From: Pseudobacteriovorax antillogorgiicola
Lineage (GTDB): Bacteria > Bdellovibrionota_B > Oligoflexia > Oligoflexales > Oligoflexaceae
Reading direction: 5' to 3'
DNA: 64,000 nt
Assembly (NCBI RefSeq): GCF_900177345.1
Contig: NZ_FWZT01000004.1
Coordinates: 310,001 to 374,000 of the forward strand
Of the stretch, positions 17,449 to 40,370 are shown piece by piece. A program made the translations under genes and the position numbers. Below the pieces are notes generated by a model. It made no database searches. It had not been told where the DNA came from and saw nothing but the letters and a program-made list of their open reading frames with translations. Positions within the stretch are counted from its first letter, which is position 1. The number at the start of each line of letters is the position of its first letter.

Positions 17449-19734
17449 CTAATGGCTCATAGGCTTGATCACGGTGACATGTGTGTTAAACGTTGAGCGC
17501 ACCTTGCTCATTGATAGCGGCACCTGGATATACTCCCCGTTTCGCCATAGATCAAGCTGATCCGTGAGGTTCGGGGTTGAAAGCCAACCATCTTGCCCAC
17601 CCTTCAGAATAAAATAGTTTGCATCGGGGTCGCCCATATCACTGATATGTCTTGAGCTAGCACCATAGGTAACGCTTTCTTGTTTTGGGCTGAATACCCG
17701 TCCTGTCTTGAATAGGGTGTCGTTACCACCATCTGCTCCATACTGTCGAAAGCGAAACCGTTCCCCGACAAGTGGCAGCATCCCGAGGGGAGACTGCATA
17801 GTTTGTATGTGAATGTCACCCCAAGTCTGACCTTCGTGCCAATGTTCCTGGCTTGACGGAAGCCAAATTTCTGCAAGAGATTTGAACCGATCACCATCTA
17901 ACTCGTCTAACCATTTGCTCAAAATGGGTTTCCACCCCCCATATCCTGTTAGATAAGCCTGTAGGGTCGGTCGGCTCGCGAAATCCTCAACATAGCTTTG
18001 CCATGCTTGATAGGATAGAATTTCGAAGGCCACCGCTCCTGCACTAGAAGCATTGTACTTACCGTCCCAAGAAATGAGTGCTTTGATGAGAGAATAGTCC
18101 TTAAGTTGTGGAATCTCATCCAGGCGTCTCGCCCAGGTCTGTTTCAATTGAAATGCCGACTGTGAATAGACATCCCCTTGCAGCTCCTTGAGATCTTCAA
18201 GGGTTACTTTGGATTTATCCTTCAAAAGCTCGATCATTCGCTCGTGGCGATCGTTTGGTGCGTAACCATGAGCAATAGGTATAGGGGGTGATGTAAAAGG
18301 TTGGTTGTTTGCTGAGGCAAGAAGACCACTTTTGGGGTTATAGGCCTTTGGTAGATCTCTCGGTGTGAGCACTCCTTGGATTTTATTATTTGGTTCCTTG
18401 ATGAGCTTGAGCGTTTCGCTTGGGTCCTTTAAAACTGGTTGCCCGTATGCGAGTACCATCCCAATATTACCATTTTTGTCTGCGTAGACCATATTTTGGG
18501 CAGAAACTCGATAATCATGGAATGCCTTTGAAAACTCCTCCCAGTTTTTAGCTTTGTTGGCTTTGAGAAACGCTGTGAGTTCATCGGAACCTTGTCGTCC
18601 TAGCCAGTTGATGGCTACCACCGGAATCTTATCCTGATCAAAATAATCAAGATCCGATAGAATGGGGCCAACCGGTGTTTCTCGGATCTCGACCTCACGG
18701 CTCCACCACCAGCGTCGTTTCAAAGTCTCCTTGCGGACTTTAATTTGCTCGGCAGGCATTTGGCTGACATCGTAGAGGTGGGAGCTGATGCCACGCATAT
18801 TGGTGCCACCCCAGGAAATATTTTGATTTCTACCTAGGCCAAAGAACGGCAAGCCAGGAATCATGAGTCCAACGCTGTGGAATTGGGGTGTTTTAATTCC
18901 TGCAATAAGCCAAAAATTGGGCAGAAAAAGGCCGACATGAGGATCGTTGGCGATGAGTGCTCCTGTGCTGGCTGCGTGGTCCTTGTGTACAACAATGGAG
19001 TTACTACCTGATCGCGAAAGTTTCATAATGAGTTCGGATAGTTCGGTTGCAGTCTTATTTTGAAAGCTGGCAATATCGAACTGTTTTTTATTCAAAAAAA
19101 CTTGATAGGCCTTCTCCCAGCCTTGTTTTTCGGCAAGCTTTAGAAATCGAAGGTAGACCCCCCAAGTAAGATCCGCCGATGCAAGGCGAGCAATTGTCAT
19201 CATATCGAGGGTGGTCAGCGGATCGTTTTCAAGGTCAAATAAGCTGAACTCAACAGGTAAGTCATCAAGCTGAGCTTTATACCAGTTGATTCCATCAGTA
19301 AACCTCTCTAGCCAACGTTTCGTTTGAGGCTCCATAATCTCCAAAGATCTTTCAGCGCTTGCTTTGAGTCCTAGAATTCGGATTCCATGATCGATGGTTG
19401 CTACTTGAGGAATTGGTCCAGAGAGTTCGGAGATGCGGCCTTGGCTGATATGTTTGAGTAGCATGATTTGGCCCAGCCGGAGGTGACCATGAACCACACC
19501 CAAAGCAAAGGCGCCATCGCTCTCTGATTTTGCTTCGATAAAGGGGATGGCGTGCTGATCCCAGTAGATCTTAATGCTAGCATCTACGGGAGCTACTCCT
19601 CCTTTGACTGCCATCATTCGTTGGCTTGTGGTGAGAGGCTCGGGGTTGCTGGTAAGAATACTACAGGAAACCAAATAAAGATTAAGAAAAGAAATGTAAA
19701 AGAATTTAAAAGTAGAAGGGAACTTTTGTACCAA
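17449..19734 (-). CDS. penicillin acylase-family Ntn-hydrolase lipoprotein
   Basis: About 761 residues. A signal peptide with lipobox LVSC is followed by an alpha chain with the family start (IKIYWDQHAIPFIEAKS, then DGAFALGVVHGHLRL). The autoprocessing junction is SRSGSNSIVVHKD, whose Ser becomes the N-terminal nucleophile of the beta chain. ALIANDPHVGLFLPNFW and GRNQNISWGGTNM are standard beta-chain landmarks. The family hydrolyses amides: penicillins, acyl-homoserine lactones or lipopeptides. An AGGAGG at 19746-19741 sits six bases before a TTG at 19734, so a TTG start is proposed; the upstream ATG (19779 or nearby) has no ribosome site. Being membrane-anchored, it probably acts on periplasmic amides. 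Confidence 0.85.
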   Translation of the reverse strand: MVQKFPSTFKFFYISFLNLYLVSCSILTSNPEPLTTSQRMMAVKGGVAPVDASIKIYWDQHAIPFIEAKSESDGAFALGVVHGHLRLGQIMLLKHISQGRISELSGPIPQVATIDHGIRILGLKASAERSLEIMEPQTKRWLERFTDGINWYKAQLDDLPVEFSLFDLENDPLTTLDMMTIARLASADLTWGVYLRFLKLAEKQGWEKAYQVFLNKKQFDIASFQNKTATELSELIMKLSRSGSNSIVVHKDHAASTGALIANDPHVGLFLPNFWLIAGIKTPQFHSVGLMIPGLPFFGLGRNQNISWGGTNMRGISSHLYDVSQMPAEQIKVRKETLKRRWWWSREVEIRETPVGPILSDLDYFDQDKIPVVAINWLGRQGSDELTAFLKANKAKNWEEFSKAFHDYRVSAQNMVYADKNGNIGMVLAYGQPVLKDPSETLKLIKEPNNKIQGVLTPRDLPKAYNPKSGLLASANNQPFTSPPIPIAHGYAPNDRHERMIELLKDKSKVTLEDLKELQGDVYSQSAFQLKQTWARRLDEIPQLKDYSLIKALISWDGKYNASSAGAVAFEILSYQAWQSYVEDFASRPTLQAYLTGYGGWKPILSKWLDELDGDRFKSLAEIWLPSSQEHWHEGQTWGDIHIQTMQSPLGMLPLVGERFRFRQYGADGGNDTLFKTGRVFSPKQESVTYGASSRHISDMGDPDANYFILKGGQDGWLSTPNLTDQLDLWRNGEYIQVPLSMSKVRSTFNTHVTVIKPMSH

Positions 19735-19868
19735 GGGAGGCCTCCTGGATCCAGAAAAATACTCATGCAGTGGGTACATCAACACGCAGAACGATTCGAC
19801 CGTCTCTACATACTAATCAAAAAGCATGCTAACGTCGATGACAAGTGGTAATTTGCGGCGCTAGCCTA

Positions 19869-22268
19869 CTATATAGCTTCATCAAGGTTGCTGTTGATCA
19901 AGGTAGGTGCCGTTATATAATAGACTGCCTGGACATCTGGAAACGATCGGACTTGCAAACCCAGCTCATGTAGATCGATCTGCCTAGCCCTGGGATCTTG
20001 TAGCTGCTCCTGGGCTTCGACTGAAATCAAGACTCCATTGGCACCAATCAGCTGCCGAACTTGTGGATCTTTAGTTAGCTCTTCCATACGAGCGGTTTGG
20101 TTTACGTTTGGCCCAACCACAGTATAGTCGATGCAGTTGTCCGATGAGAGGTTGCCGACAATGGCTTGGCCATAGTGAATAGCGATTCCGAAGTTTAGCG
20201 GTTGCCCATTGCGATCGGCGTTACGGCGACTGGTTTCGCGAACGAGTATGCTCGCCAATTCAACCATCTGTGCGACAGAATTCTGCTCTTGGTCCTCAAT
20301 GAAAATAAAGAGGCAATCTCCAATAACTTTTACCTGACCGACCTTCTGAGCTTCATTGACCGTGGTTTCATAGTAACCTTTGACTAGCTTGGCGATCTCC
20401 AGGGAATCCATTTTTTGAAATAGCCCTGAGTAGCCCCGTATATCAGCTTGTAGAATGCTGGCTTGAATGGGATGGGGAGTGAGCAAGTCTTGAAGCTTTG
20501 AGTCTAGGTCTGCTCCCTCCTTAAATCGACTGGTGATGCTTTGGGTTAGAAATTTGCTAAGAATATCTTCTTTCAGGGAGTGGAATACGAGACTCATTTG
20601 ATGGGCTTGCTTTTGAGCTTCAATCTCGACCCGCCGCCACTGTTTTTCTAGCTCTTGCAAGCTACTTGTGATGAGTTCGGTTGCAGCATATTGCTGCCAA
20701 GCTGGTATCTGTAGCTGAAACCTTATCTCTCCAAGCTCGGGAAAGGATCGATCGATACGAATCGTGAGGATAAACGAGAATCGTTGGCGATGAAGTTCAA
20801 CAAAATCTCGGTTTGGTAGCAATTCTTTGCTCGTCATGGGGGCTAGTTTCGTTATCTTTTCAGAGGCTAGGGCTTCATGGAGGTCTTTGTTCTTGCTTTG
20901 AATCTCGAACCCATCGACTTGGCCTAAGTTATTTAGATACGCAAGCCATGACCCCCTGAGGTCTTGCCAGGATCGTACATCGTTCCAGGTTTCATGAAGT
21001 TTATGACGGCTCTGATTGATGAGTTTAAAGCGAACAAATCGAAGGTATAAGACTAGGGAAGCTAGGAACGCTGCACTGACAAGAAGATAGAAAATGCTAT
21101 GGATTGGAACGATGACCGTCTGATTATAGATCATTTGCAAGGCACTCCAGGCTAATAAGCCGCCAAGGCCACAAAGCGACGTGAAGAGGGCTATGGGAAG
21201 ATTGCCAAGAAGTGCAGTGATAAATAGCAGCAAGGACAAGCCTAGAGGAAGAATGCCAGTTCTCGATTGTAGCTCAATAGGCTCGCGGAAGAGAATTCGG
21301 CCAGATAGGAAATTGTCTAGGAAACGGGCTGTCAAATGGTGCTCGGGAATGATCCGATCCTCTGTAGCCGCAGACCAAGAGCCGGGGCCTTGGAATCGCC
21401 TCATTTTATGACTGGCAAGGAGAACGACTTTGCCTTCCAAGGACGAAATCTGGCCTTGGAGCACGGAATTTAGGCCAACAATCGGAATCTGAGCCTTGGC
21501 GAAGTATTCCTTGGTTGTGACTGCTGGTTCTGATAGGCAATTCTTGCGTGCCACATGAAAGGCATTTTCACTTTGCCATCGCTTGCTGCTCAGGCCAAAG
21601 CTAGTTTTAAAGTCGGATTGACTCAGATGAGAGAGAAGCCATAGTATCGAACCAGGAAGTACGATACCGCCTTCTAATCCTACAGTGTGAGTGTAGAAGG
21701 GCGCGCAGTAGATACTTGATTCCGTTCCATAGCGAGGTGGGAGCCCAAAAGCTTTCTGCGCTTTCACATACTGGGGACTTTCAGTAAATTTCAGGGGCAA
21801 GGCTTCGATAGGTGCATCGTTGTTAGACAAGACGAGGCTTTGTCTCAAGAGGGGGTAGAGGGATTCGGGAATATCGCCATCGCTGCCAATATCCAAGCCA
21901 CTGCCTATATAGCGATCGTAGTTACGAATCATTTGTTCGAGAATTTCGTCGTGGGGGTCAGATGTGTCCTGTAGCTGGAGAAGGGAAAGGATCCAAGGAC
22001 GACCGTTCAGTGCCAAGCGACTGAGTGCCTGTGCCAAGACTCTTCTAGGTAGGGGCCAGCCAAACTCTTGCTCTGTTTGCTCATTGATCTCAACAATCAC
22101 AACTGGTGATGGTCTTAACTTCTCGTGGCGATATGATAGAGTTAGGCTGTAGATCTGCTCGATGGCATCTTCATACCAGGCTGTAGGGATGATGGGATAT
22201 GAGCCTTGAAAGACGATGGCTGGTAGGATGCATGCTAATGTCAGTAGTCTGTAGAATGGGTACTTCAT
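19869..22268 (-). CDS. CHASE2-domain adenylate cyclase
   Basis: A 799-residue membrane receptor: N-terminal helix, periplasmic CHASE2 domain (about 35-320, with VVIVEINEQTEQEFGWPLPR as its signature), three helices (about 335-412), a linker and a class III cyclase (about 595-799). The catalytic set looks complete: ADIRGYS and VIGDCLF give the two metal Asp residues, VKVIG the adenine-contacting Lys, and DYTVVGPNVNQTARMEE the transition-state Asn and Arg. It should convert ATP to cAMP in response to a periplasmic signal. The gene is monocistronic and diverges from the lipoprotein at 22681 across a region holding a large inverted repeat. Confidence 0.92.
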   Translation of the reverse strand: MKYPFYRLLTLACILPAIVFQGSYPIIPTAWYEDAIEQIYSLTLSYRHEKLRPSPVVIVEINEQTEQEFGWPLPRRVLAQALSRLALNGRPWILSLLQLQDTSDPHDEILEQMIRNYDRYIGSGLDIGSDGDIPESLYPLLRQSLVLSNNDAPIEALPLKFTESPQYVKAQKAFGLPPRYGTESSIYCAPFYTHTVGLEGGIVLPGSILWLLSHLSQSDFKTSFGLSSKRWQSENAFHVARKNCLSEPAVTTKEYFAKAQIPIVGLNSVLQGQISSLEGKVVLLASHKMRRFQGPGSWSAATEDRIIPEHHLTARFLDNFLSGRILFREPIELQSRTGILPLGLSLLLFITALLGNLPIALFTSLCGLGGLLAWSALQMIYNQTVIVPIHSIFYLLVSAAFLASLVLYLRFVRFKLINQSRHKLHETWNDVRSWQDLRGSWLAYLNNLGQVDGFEIQSKNKDLHEALASEKITKLAPMTSKELLPNRDFVELHRQRFSFILTIRIDRSFPELGEIRFQLQIPAWQQYAATELITSSLQELEKQWRRVEIEAQKQAHQMSLVFHSLKEDILSKFLTQSITSRFKEGADLDSKLQDLLTPHPIQASILQADIRGYSGLFQKMDSLEIAKLVKGYYETTVNEAQKVGQVKVIGDCLFIFIEDQEQNSVAQMVELASILVRETSRRNADRNGQPLNFGIAIHYGQAIVGNLSSDNCIDYTVVGPNVNQTARMEELTKDPQVRQLIGANGVLISVEAQEQLQDPRARQIDLHELGLQVRSFPDVQAVYYITAPTLINSNLDEAI

Positions 22269-23202: not shown

Positions 23203-23466
23203 ATGAAAATTGACGTTTTATTAAATAGGCTGTGGGACGATGAAAAGCGACTCCAGCGCTGGCCGAGAAAGCAAAAGCAGCAGTTCGTTTGCCTGGAATA
23301 CGTGATCGATAAAGTTCCTAAAGCAAAGCAGTACACGGAGAAAGAAATCAACCGATTGATCAAGGCCTGGATCACCTTTGAGGACTATGTGCGCGTCAGG
23401 CGACAGCTTGTAGACTTTGGGTTCCTAGGACGAACCAAAGACGGCTCATCCTATTGGCGTCTCTAA
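23203..23466 (+). CDS. DUF2087-domain protein
   Basis: An 87-residue protein matching the small helical DUF2087 domain: LQRWPRKQKQQFVCLEYV, then YTEKEINRLIKAW, then DYVRVRRQLVDFGFLGRTKDG and SYWRL. In other bacteria this domain appears alone or behind ArsR-type winged helices and is thought to be a regulatory module. AAGGAGG precedes the ATG by seven bases. Its stop overlaps the stop of the convergent dehydrogenase gene by four bases. Confidence 0.85.
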   Translation: MKIDVLLNRLWDDEKRLQRWPRKQKQQFVCLEYVIDKVPKAKQYTEKEINRLIKAWITFEDYVRVRRQLVDFGFLGRTKDGSSYWRL

Positions 23467-24941
23467 GAGTAGACAGTGTTGCTTAACTCGGGGCCCCGCT
23501 TGCCGGACTCGTATTCCTTGATATTAGCTAGGGTGACCTCGGTAATCTTGTCTAGGGCCTCTTCGGTCATAAAGGCTTGATGACTGGTGATCAAAACATT
23601 GTTGAACGTTAAGAGTCTGGCAAGCACATCGTCGGAAATACCTTCGGTGGATTTATCCTGGAAGAAGTACTCAGCTTCTTCTTCATAAACGTCCAGAGCA
23701 GCGCCGCCGATTTTCTTACTTTTTAAACCTTGAATCAACGCCACGGTATCGATCAAGCCACCACGGCTTGTGTTTACAATGTAGACGCCCTCTTTCATGG
23801 TACGGATGGCATCTCCATCAATCAGATGCTTCGTTTCAGGGGTCAACGGAGCGTGTAAGCTAATAATGTCGGAAGATCTTAGAAGCTCTGCAAGGCTAAG
23901 GTATTGAACGTTGTCCAAAGCCTCCAGCTCTGGGTCGGGGTACTTGTCAAAGGCTAGCACCCTGGCTCCAAAGCCAAGCATCTGCTGCACGAAAATACGA
24001 CCTATTTTACCGGTACCAATTACACCAACTGTTTTGCCATGGAGATCGAAACCCACTAGCTCGTCCAACTTGAAGTTACCTTCTCGGACTCGGTTGTAGG
24101 CCCTGTGAAGACGACGGTTAAGGCAGAGAAGCATAGCGGTACCATGCTCAGCGACGGCATAAGGCGAATAAGCCGGAACTCGCACGACATCAAGCCCATA
24201 GCGTTGGCATGCTTTGAGATCCACGTGATTGAAACCCGCACATCGCAGTGCGATCAGACCAACGCCACAGTCTTGTAAGATTTTGGCGGCATCGTCGTCG
24301 ATGGTGTCATTTACGAAGGAGCACACCACTTCATGACCAGATGCTACGGGAGCCGTCTTGGCAGAAAGGCGAGCCTCGACAAACGTGAATTCGAACTGTT
24401 CTCCACCTGCGGTGATGAACGGCTTCTTCATGTAGGGCTGACTATCGAAGAACGCCACTCGTGTTTTTTGGCTAACTTGAGGAGGCCTTTGATCGACGAT
24501 GATTTGGTTTTTGCTCCGAATTTTTTGGCCCATATGGGAAAGCAGGGCTTGCAAAAGGGAGTCACTATCTCTTCTAGGGTTGTAGAGGTAGGACCTCAGC
24601 TCTACAAAGGGAATGCTCCTCACCGCCACCGAACTTCTTGCAACGGCACTTGCAGAGCGGCTCGCTCCTGTTACAAAACTGGTTAAACCTAGGAACTGAC
24701 CCGTTTTAAGATAGCGAATTGATGTATTGGTACCATCTGTGTTGCGGCGCATGGTCTCTACCTGGCCGGAGAGTAGAATCATCAGTCTCGGGTCGTCCTG
24801 ACCCTCTTCAAATATCGTTTGATTGGTTTCAAAGCGCAGTTCCTCGCTTTGATCGACAATGAATTGGATCACTGAGTCTGGCAAGGCACTCATCTCGGGA
24901 AACCTTGCTACCGCAGTTTTTAGCCTATCGACTTCGCTCAT
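23463..24941 (-). CDS. CRP-like sensor domain fused to a D-lactate-type dehydrogenase
   Basis: 492 residues in two parts. Residues about 15-145 are a cyclic-nucleotide-binding-like domain (FEEGQDDPRLMILLSGQVE, then GQFLGLTSF, then SRSASAVARS). The phosphate-binding Arg is kept, but the ribose-contacting Glu after the Gly is Leu. Residues about 160-492 are a D-2-hydroxyacid dehydrogenase of the fermentative D-LDH group. They carry catalytic Arg in LRCAGFNHVDL, NAD motif GVIGTGKIGR, Glu in DVYEEEAEYFF and His in TSHQAFMTEEAL. It should interconvert pyruvate and D-lactate with NADH, with the N-terminal domain probably imposing ligand control. The frame is continuous with no internal start signal I can see. 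I do not know this fusion from characterised enzymes. Confidence 0.88.
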   Translation of the reverse strand: MSEVDRLKTAVARFPEMSALPDSVIQFIVDQSEELRFETNQTIFEEGQDDPRLMILLSGQVETMRRNTDGTNTSIRYLKTGQFLGLTSFVTGASRSASAVARSSVAVRSIPFVELRSYLYNPRRDSDSLLQALLSHMGQKIRSKNQIIVDQRPPQVSQKTRVAFFDSQPYMKKPFITAGGEQFEFTFVEARLSAKTAPVASGHEVVCSFVNDTIDDDAAKILQDCGVGLIALRCAGFNHVDLKACQRYGLDVVRVPAYSPYAVAEHGTAMLLCLNRRLHRAYNRVREGNFKLDELVGFDLHGKTVGVIGTGKIGRIFVQQMLGFGARVLAFDKYPDPELEALDNVQYLSLAELLRSSDIISLHAPLTPETKHLIDGDAIRTMKEGVYIVNTSRGGLIDTVALIQGLKSKKIGGAALDVYEEEAEYFFQDKSTEGISDDVLARLLTFNNVLITSHQAFMTEEALDKITEVTLANIKEYESGKRGPELSNTVYS

Positions 24942-39353: not shown

Positions 39354-40370
39354 TTAGCTAGCATTCTGCGATCTGCCGACGGTACTCGGATGGGTCCGTA
39401 GCTTTTGATAGGCTACTATATGAGCTATAGACCGCCCCAGCTTGTGGGGGATAAGCTGTATAGACGAATCATAGAGTTCGAGAAGCTGTAAATCTCCTAG
39501 GTCATCGAGGGAGCTAATCTCAAACTTTACGCCCGCCTTACGCTCTAGGTGAGCAGTAAGCTCATCATAGCTTAGAGTGATGCTTTTCTTAGTGTCGTAG
39601 CCCATGTTTCGGGCATAGACCACAATCGCGCGGGCAGTCCGAATGGTTTTATCACGAAAATGATGCTGGGCACGTTTCTTAGTCAGGCCAAGCTTTGCAT
39701 CTTCAATGAAGCGGGCCATGTCTATTATAGAAACCATGACATTGTAGGGAATGATATGTCGATCTTTATCGGGATCTTTCTCTAGCTTCAGCAGACCAGC
39801 ATCTTGAAGCACTTTGATGATGGCATGAATTCGTTCCTCACTGAGTGATAGGCAATCCATGAGTTCATCTTGAATCTCATCAAGAGCTACATAACTTGAA
39901 CCATCGATGTCTTGCTTATGATACTTGGCGAGGGTTGAGAGGGTACCGCAAAGGGTCTGTGCCTGGAACGTGAGGTCAATCTGTTCTAGGCGTGCTGACT
40001 CTAGCTGCTCTTGCTGACGAATCATAAAATCGAGTAGGTCAGTCAACCGTATTGAGAATTCTTTGATGATGATTTCTATCCACGGAGGCACGTCTTTAAG
40101 GGTTTTTTTAACGCTGTCGGCAGGAATCTTGCGAACGGTAACATGACCAACAGCCTTGGCAGAAGCTGTCCGCGGCCTTCGATTAAGGCAGGTTAAAAGG
40201 CCAATGACCTCTCCGGGGTGCATATAACTGAGAGTTAGATGGATGGTATCTTTCTCCCGGTAGATCTCAACTTGCCCCTCTTCGATGACAAATAAGTCAC
40301 CACCCGGATCGCCGTGGGAAAAGAGAACCTGCCCGTCCTTGAATTGCAGTAATTCCTTAGTTTCTACCAT
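39354..40370 (-). CDS. CRP/FNR-like cyclic-nucleotide-domain protein
   Basis: 338 residues. The N-terminal cNMP-binding fold (about 5-115) shows FSHGDPGGDLFVIEEGQVEI, then HPGEVIGLLTCLNRRPRTASAKA. The phosphate-binding Arg is kept, but the Glu expected after the Gly is Leu, as in the dehydrogenase fusion at 23463. A long helix links to a winged-helix-like region (about 155-215: ALDEIQDELMDCLSLSEERIHAIIKVLQD, GLLKL). A further 120 residues form a second helical unit with a possible helix-turn-helix (SYDELTAHLERKAG). Probably a transcription regulator. GAGG lies six bases before the ATG. Confidence 0.82.
   Translation of the reverse strand: MVETKELLQFKDGQVLFSHGDPGGDLFVIEEGQVEIYREKDTIHLTLSYMHPGEVIGLLTCLNRRPRTASAKAVGHVTVRKIPADSVKKTLKDVPPWIEIIIKEFSIRLTDLLDFMIRQQEQLESARLEQIDLTFQAQTLCGTLSTLAKYHKQDIDGSSYVALDEIQDELMDCLSLSEERIHAIIKVLQDAGLLKLEKDPDKDRHIIPYNVMVSIIDMARFIEDAKLGLTKKRAQHHFRDKTIRTARAIVVYARNMGYDTKKSITLSYDELTAHLERKAGVKFEISSLDDLGDLQLLELYDSSIQLIPHKLGRSIAHIVAYQKLRTHPSTVGRSQNAS

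What the first reader, a model, noticed from the sequence alone, without database searches (positions are those of the whole stretch)
23463..24941. CRP-like sensor domain fused to a fermentative D-lactate dehydrogenase
One uninterrupted frame joins a cNMP-fold domain to a complete D-2-hydroxyacid dehydrogenase with the catalytic Arg, Glu and His and the GTGKIGR nucleotide motif. Known D-LDHs of this group are about 330 residues without a sensor. This would be direct ligand gating of a fermentation enzyme. The sensor keeps the phosphate Arg but lacks the usual ribose Glu, so the ligand may not be cAMP.
Basis: partly seen in the sequence, partly recalled or inferred. Interest (0 to 1): 0.72.

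Follow-up and report, generated by a model that had tools for sequence, protein, structure and literature searches.

The report
Lactate dehydrogenase with built-in nucleotide-type sensor
A bacterial fermentation enzyme that makes D-lactate carries a cAMP-receptor-like sensor domain at its front end, and the same fusion is kept in two distant bacterial phyla, so lactate production is probably switched directly by a small-molecule signal, which in this species is likely not ordinary cAMP.

Summary
On the minus strand, 24941..23463 is one 492-codon frame: a CRP-type cyclic-nucleotide-binding (CNB) domain, a C-helix, a short disordered linker and a complete LdhA-type D-lactate dehydrogenase with catalytic R393/E422/H454, GTGKIG and D332. 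It is not an assembly error. Intact or near-intact copies occur in two other genomes of the window's phylum and in four Bipolaricaulota genomes; a tree of the LDH part alone puts six of them in one clade (93/89), away from stand-alone LDHs of the same phylum. The window-type sensors keep the phosphate Arg-Ser but share E72->L, S62->R, T127->K and S128->N (E. coli CRP numbering), a more cationic pocket. The Bipolaricaulota sensors keep the canonical GE..RS cassette, and in three of four genomes the fusion lies two genes from a soluble-adenylyl-cyclase-like gene. Best reading: a ligand-gated tetrameric D-LDH; probably cAMP in Bipolaricaulota, probably another anionic ligand here. Gating, ligand and catalysis are inferred, not shown. 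CNB-gated enzymes and allosteric D-LDHs are each known; I found no report of this combination in the open-access library searched (UniProt/InterPro could not be searched). A new variant of a known kind.

The parts
23463..24941 (-). Complete gene: CNB domain fused to D-lactate dehydrogenase, 492 aa (P0001)
   Evidence: One open frame; Pfam cNMP_binding + 2-Hacid_dh + 2-Hacid_dh_C; only LdhA-type D-LDH found in the genome
24588..24941 (-). N-terminal CNB (CRP-type) sensor domain, residues 1-118
   Evidence: PF00027 3.4e-15; AF2 model of residues 1-150 pLDDT 81.6, Foldseek to GlxR/MtbCRP with cAMP, E ~2e-11, TM ~0.8
24651..24704 (-). Altered phosphate-binding cassette TGQFLGLTSFVTGASRSA, residues 80-97: ribose Glu -> L86; Arg R95 and S96 kept
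   Evidence: Alignments with CRP and with the other fusions; G85/R95/S96 invariant in A1
24495..24566 (-). C-helix (CRP dimerisation-helix equivalent), residues 126-149, with conserved K144-N145 at the CRP T127-S128 positions
   Evidence: AF2 helix 126-149 (126-143 in full model); residue mapping
24471..24530 (-). Low-confidence linker region, residues 138-157, between sensor and enzyme; no HTH domain
   Evidence: AF2 pLDDT < 50 at 138-157 in full-length model; no HTH hit in Pfam
23466..24467 (-). D-lactate dehydrogenase moiety, residues 159-492; R393, E422, H454 catalytic; GTGKIG 309-314; D332 (NADH-type)
   Evidence: 51% identical to E. coli LdhA
19869..22268 (-). Neighbour (possible signal source, weak link): CHASE2 + class III nucleotidyl cyclase, 799 aa, with catalytic motifs ADIRGY(608), KVIGD(647), IDYTVVGPNVNQTAR(713)
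   Evidence: PF05226 2.9e-8, PF00211 4.8e-11; motifs; 1.2 kb from the fusion but the genome has 25 cyclase domains

Best explanation
This is an allosterically gated D-lactate dehydrogenase (pyruvate + NADH -> D-lactate + NAD+). Its LdhA-type catalytic part carries its own CRP-like sensor in place of the poorly defined effector sites of ordinary Gram-negative D-LDHs. Proposed mechanism: D-LDHs of this clade are cooperative tetramers; each subunit adds a CNB domain whose C-helix pairs with that of a neighbour, as in CRP; ligand binding at the G85-L86..R95-S96 cassette moves the C-helix, and through the short linker (residues ~138-157) this shifts the tetramer between low- and high-affinity states. 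Shown: one intact frame, both folds, catalytic residues, conservation of the fusion across two phyla, and two conserved versions of the ligand site. Inferred: LDH activity, tetramer, coupling, sign of regulation, ligand. Ligand: in Bipolaricaulota most likely cAMP. In the window's lineage the pocket has lost the ribose Glu and gained positive residues (R76, K144), so I favour an anionic ligand other than classical cAMP (about 55%), with weak or relaxed cyclic-nucleotide binding second (30%) and a sensor that no longer senses third (15%).
For: Two full domains in one frame. The fusion recurs in G001 and G056 of the same phylum and in Bipolaricaulota G058, G149, G152 (coding sequence interrupted between the halves) and G150 (split over two contigs). 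LDH-only tree: 6 fusions one clade, 93/89, one change, 0 of 500 shuffles as low. A tree holding all LDHs of the window's phylum together is rejected, p-AU 0.002. Among the three window-phylum fusions the CNB parts are only 28-35% identical while LDH is 54-68%, yet G85, L86, T87, S88, R95, S96, K144, N145 and R76 are shared by all three, which suggests a selected pocket. Bipolaricaulota keep G-E, R-S, and three genomes have a twin-cyclase + AAA_16 + TPR gene two genes away. G056 has a lactate permease gene (PF02652, 4e-93) about 15 bp downstream on the same strand, supporting lactate as the metabolite. The same genome fuses canonical CNB domains to other enzymes (two CNB-EAL proteins; also a CNB-histidine kinase).
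Against: No experiment shows gating or activity. The full-length model gives no interface (pTM 0.51, linker pLDDT < 50). Sensor conservation is low, so in the window lineage it could be a structural relic. The cyclase neighbours are not in an operon with the fusion; the window genome has 25 cyclase domains, G001 and G058 have no cyclase next to the fusion, and the three Bipolaricaulota loci are close relatives, hence not independent. A CNB domain could act in localisation or oligomerisation only.
Confidence: 0.7

Rival explanations
1. The sensor binds cAMP (or cGMP) despite the lost ribose Glu, and the enzyme is a straightforward cAMP-gated D-LDH fed by one of the genome's many cyclases.
For: CNB fold closest to cAMP-bound GlxR and MtbCRP; Arg95-Ser96 kept, plus the beta2-beta3 Gly (G59) that Kannan et al. 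link to the phosphate Arg (PMC2246266; G59 invariant in A1); 25 cyclase domains in the genome, one 1.2 kb away with the class III motifs; relatives in Bipolaricaulota have the canonical cassette.
Against: L86 replaces the ribose Glu in all three fusions of this phylum, and the adenine-contacting T127/S128 positions are K/N; the same genome keeps GE..RS cassettes in other CNB proteins (L084, L085, L086, L088), so loss is specific.
Confidence: 0.3
2. The sensor is a degenerate, structural N-terminal domain that only promotes assembly; the LDH is constitutive.
For: CNB part only 28-35% identical between the window-phylum fusions versus 54-68% for LDH; Glu lost; linker low-confidence.
Against: Ligand-pocket positions stay identical while the rest drifts, and the fusion itself has been kept over the depth of the clade.
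Confidence: 0.18
3. Two separate genes joined by a sequencing or assembly error.
For: None found; only the general possibility for a draft assembly (68 contigs).
Against: Same fusion in independent genomes of two phyla in one frame; GC and GC3 are the same in both halves.
Confidence: 0.01
4. A transcription factor of the CRP/FNR family that acquired an LDH-like ligand domain (moonlighting regulator) rather than an enzyme.
For: CRP-like N-terminus including a C-helix.
Against: No HTH domain, only ~10 residues between C-helix and LDH; all catalytic residues kept.
Confidence: 0.03

Closest known systems
Gram-negative allosteric D-LDHs (LdhA of P. aeruginosa 5z20, F. nucleatum 5z21, E. coli; Furukawa et al. 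2014, PMC4230899)
   Same: LDH half 51% identical to E. coli LdhA, best PDB matches, same catalytic triad and NAD motif
   Different: Those are ~330-345 aa with 'no additional protein domain' and uncertain effector sites; here a 158-residue CNB domain is added
CRP/GlxR/MtbCRP cAMP receptors
   Same: CNB fold and C-helix (TM ~0.8), phosphate Arg-Ser
   Different: No HTH domain; E72->L, S62->R, T127->K, S128->N; output is an enzyme
D-3-phosphoglycerate dehydrogenase with ACT/ASB domains (same superfamily; serine-gated)
   Same: 2-hydroxyacid dehydrogenase gated by an added small-molecule-binding domain (described in PMC4230899)
   Different: Regulatory domains are ACT/ASB there, an N-terminal CNB here; different substrate
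CNB domains fused to other output domains (HisK, AAA ATPase, CBS; Kannan et al. 2007, PMC2246266) and cAMP-gated Mt-PatA acetyltransferase Rv0998 (the latter from memory)
   Same: CNB as a plug-in regulator of a non-transcriptional output
   Different: 'Dehydrogenase' does not occur in that survey's text, and none of the CNB families in the passages I read is an LDH or 2-hydroxyacid dehydrogenase
NtcA (2-oxoglutarate sensor)
   Same: Cassette lacks the Glu but keeps the Arg: GVLSLLTGSDRFY (PMC2246266) versus GLTSFVTGASRSA
   Different: NtcA is a DNA-binding regulator; its other 2-oxoglutarate contacts were not tested here

Membership tests
LdhA-type D-lactate dehydrogenase | 2-Hacid_dh and 2-Hacid_dh_C domains over the whole enzyme | tested here: met
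   residues 162-484 and 269-456, far above cut-offs
LdhA-type D-lactate dehydrogenase | Catalytic Arg/Glu/His and GxGxxG with NAD-binding Asp | tested here: met
   R393, E422, H454 (29- and 32-residue spacings), GTGKIG 309-314, D332
LdhA-type D-lactate dehydrogenase | Closest to characterised D-LDHs rather than PGDH or glyoxylate reductase | tested here: met
   PDB: D-LDHs of this group 1e-109 to 1e-78, PGDH 1e-39; fold search
LdhA-type D-lactate dehydrogenase | Single-module ~330 aa chain without regulatory domain | tested here: not met
   492 aa with N-terminal CNB; this makes it a variant, not a plain LdhA
LdhA-type D-lactate dehydrogenase | Pyruvate reduction with NADH; tetramer with cooperativity | not testable with these tools
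   Needs purified protein
Canonical cAMP-binding CNB domain | CNB fold with C-helix | tested here: met
   PF00027; model and fold match
Canonical cAMP-binding CNB domain | Phosphate Arg (CRP R82) and the beta2-beta3 Gly | tested here: met
   R95, S96, G59 invariant
Canonical cAMP-binding CNB domain | Ribose Glu (CRP E72) | tested here: not met
   L86 in window, L in G001 and G056; E in Bipolaricaulota fusions
Canonical cAMP-binding CNB domain | CRP adenine contacts T127/S128 | tested here: not met
   K144/N145 by alignment; helix register carries some uncertainty
CRP/FNR transcription regulator | C-terminal HTH DNA-binding domain | tested here: not met
   No HTH in Pfam; C-helix runs into LDH within ~10 residues
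NtcA-type 2-oxoglutarate sensor | Cassette without Glu, with Arg | tested here: met
   GLTSFVTGASR versus GVLSLLTGSDR
NtcA-type 2-oxoglutarate sensor | Second Arg and Glu of the C-helix that hold 2-oxoglutarate | not tested
   NtcA was not aligned residue by residue; K140/K144 lie in that region

The most novel reading that the evidence does not exclude
A fermentation enzyme gated in one chain by a CRP-fold sensor whose pocket has been re-tuned, in one of two lineages of the same fusion family, from cAMP to another anionic metabolite (for example a 2-oxo acid as in NtcA): a natural pair of cAMP-gated and metabolite-gated D-lactate dehydrogenases.
Probability: 0.35. Interest if true: 0.75.

Novelty: new variant of a known kind. 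Interest (0 to 1): 0.6.

Why it matters
D-LDHs of this group are cooperative, yet in 2014 their physiological effectors and binding sites were described as uncertain (PMC4230899). Here evolution has attached a well-understood sensor module directly to the enzyme, so the question 'what signal controls lactate output' becomes a binding and kinetics experiment on one polypeptide. The family offers an internal comparison, with a canonical ligand site in one phylum and a changed site in another on the same enzyme. A D-LDH switchable by a defined ligand would also be useful for D-lactate production.

Tried and rejected
Assembly artefact: rejected by independent copies. Operon with a cyclase: not seen; the window cyclase is 1.2 kb away with two oppositely oriented genes between, and with 25 cyclase domains in 7.3 Mb such closeness is expected a few percent of the time (my estimate). 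CRP-site control of the gene: TGTGA-N6-TCACA matches in the window are at chance level (27 versus 28 expected) and none lies upstream of the gene; promoter and terminator scans were uninformative. Plasmid records: no place covers 80% of the query, so no fusion found there. Viral contigs: only stand-alone LDH. Surveys of 199 Marinimicrobia, 398 Bacillota and 395 Bacteroidota genomes found nothing above a threshold that excludes stand-alone LDHs; these are samples in which only the first few candidates per genome were scored, so they limit frequency but do not prove absence. First alignment A2 misplaced CNB-only rows and was not used. My first reading that Bipolaricaulota keep CRP's T127-S128 was dropped after alignment: the register gives E and T. 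Paper searches for CNB + LDH fusions returned nothing relevant.

Full report
WHAT IS THERE. The finding's coordinates hold a single gene on the minus strand (24941 to 23463, ATG, 492 aa). Pfam places cNMP_binding at 35-117, the 2-hydroxyacid dehydrogenase catalytic domain at 162-484 and its NAD-binding domain at 269-456. The second half matches fermentative D-LDHs of P. aeruginosa and F. nucleatum (9.7e-109, 3.3e-102) and is 51% identical to E. coli LdhA. R393, E422 and H454 are spaced 29 and 32 residues apart, as in the catalytic Arg235/Glu264/His296 of Lactobacillus D-LDH (numbering from memory); GTGKIG 309-314 and D332 complete an NADH-type site. In the own genome it is the only LdhA-type enzyme found; the next-best matches are about 30% identical.

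STRUCTURE. AlphaFold2 on a 15-sequence alignment gives mean pLDDT 78 with both domains folded and a low-confidence stretch at 138-157 between them. The full-length model matches D-LDH structures (5z20, E 7e-38). Modelled alone, residues 1-150 form a CNB beta-roll with a cassette helix at 86-91 and a long C-helix at 126-149 (pLDDT 82), closest to cAMP-bound GlxR and M. tuberculosis CRP (E ~2e-11, TM ~0.8). There is no HTH domain. The quaternary arrangement was not modelled.

IT IS A FAMILY. The same architecture occurs in G001 (same family, 510 aa, 57% identical overall), G056 (same class, 530-codon open frame) and, far away, Bipolaricaulota: G058 (485 aa) and G149 (503 aa) intact, G152 with its coding sequence interrupted between the halves, G150 split across two contigs. 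In the window's phylum 3 of 58 genomes carry the fusion and 9 carry stand-alone LDHs at the same cut-off. Among 100 Bipolaricaulota genomes, 4 have any match at 1e-60, and all of these are fusions (G152 and G150 as qualified above). A tree of the LDH part only puts six fusions in one clade (93/89), sister to stand-alone LDHs of Bacillota, Bacteroidota, Fusobacteriota and Marinimicrobia, while the stand-alone LDHs of the window's phylum lie elsewhere. Forcing all LDHs of the window's phylum together is rejected (p-AU 0.002). A single fusion event followed by transfer between phyla is the simplest reading; replacement of the CNB part in one lineage is not excluded, because CNB identity across the phyla is only 19-24%.

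THE SENSOR SITE COMES IN TWO TYPES. Aligned with E. coli CRP (crp taken from NC_000913), Bipolaricaulota fusions keep G71-E72 and R82-S83. Window, G001 and G056 keep R82-S83 but all have E72->L, L73->T, S62->R, T127->K and S128->N. These positions are identical although the CNB domains are only 28-35% identical overall, so the altered pocket looks selected rather than decayed. It has lost one negative and gained two positive residues, which points to a more anionic ligand than cAMP. NtcA, the 2-oxoglutarate sensor, shows the same trait of no Glu with Arg kept (GVLSLLTGSDRFY, Kannan et al. 2007, PMC2246266). That paper also describes non-canonical cassettes binding other ligands (heme in CooA, chlorophenolacetic acid in CprK). 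In trypanosome PKA, exchange of the cassette Arg and a neighbouring residue goes with a ligand switch to nucleosides (PMC10959531). In the window's own genome, other CNB proteins keep the canonical GE..RS cassette, including two CNB-EAL proteins, so the genome probably does use cyclic nucleotides, and the LDH sensor departs from them specifically. Another window protein (39354-40370, CNB, 338 aa) also lacks the Glu (GLLT..RTA).

NEIGHBOURS. In G056 a lactate permease gene (PF02652, 4e-93) follows the fusion on the same strand after about 15 bp, which supports lactate as the metabolite. In G149, G150 and G152 a large gene with two cyclase domains, AAA_16 and TPRs, the layout of soluble adenylyl cyclase (resemblance from memory), lies two genes from the fusion, in genomes with only a few cyclases. 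In the window a CHASE2-cyclase gene with class III motifs lies 1.2 kb away, but the genome has 25 cyclase domains, so this is weak. G001 and G058 have no cyclase next door.

MECHANISM. Furukawa et al. (PMC4230899) describe D-LDHs of this group as cooperative tetramers whose effector sites and physiological effectors are uncertain, and contrast them, 'no additional protein domain', with the ACT/ASB-gated phosphoglycerate dehydrogenases. The fusion fits as the D-LDH counterpart of the latter. CNB domains would pair through their C-helices, and ligand binding would be passed through the short linker to the tetramer, changing affinity for pyruvate. Activation or inhibition cannot be told. These steps are inference.

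WHAT IS NOT SHOWN. No activity, binding or regulation was measured. The statement that the combination is undescribed rests on an open-access library and on my memory; protein databases such as UniProt could not be searched. The Marinimicrobia, Bacillota and Bacteroidota surveys are samples with shallow scoring.

VERDICT. Interest 0.6.

Noticed in passing
window 39354-40370 (-): A second CNB protein (338 aa, no other Pfam domain) that also lacks the ribose Glu but keeps the Arg (GLLT..RTA).
   Followed up: partly
window 19869-22268 (-): CHASE2-class III cyclase with complete-looking catalytic motifs, 1.2 kb from the fusion; one of 25 cyclase domains in this genome.
   Followed up: partly
L085 948-2183 and L086 670-1917 (own genome): Two CNB-EAL proteins with canonical cassettes: possible direct cAMP control of c-di-GMP breakdown. 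L092 is a CNB-histidine kinase; L093 combines a CNB with a metallo-beta-lactamase fold.
   Followed up: partly
L096 32-3088, L097 8644-11985, L104 3646-7671 (Bipolaricaulota): Twin-cyclase + AAA_16 + TPR genes resembling soluble adenylyl cyclase beside the fusion and a repeat-rich secreted-looking protein.
   Followed up: partly
L009 fusion protein P0003; L080: Bipolaricaulota fusions have Ser-Arg where the window enzyme has the NADH-type Asp-Lys (YSRT versus FDKY), suggesting NADPH preference.
   Followed up: partly
window 23203-23466 (+): DUF2087 gene whose stop overlaps the fusion gene's stop by 4 bp, convergent.
   Followed up: no
window 17449-19785 (-): Penicillin-amidase family gene (PF01804, 5.6e-134) next to the cyclase.
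   Followed up: no
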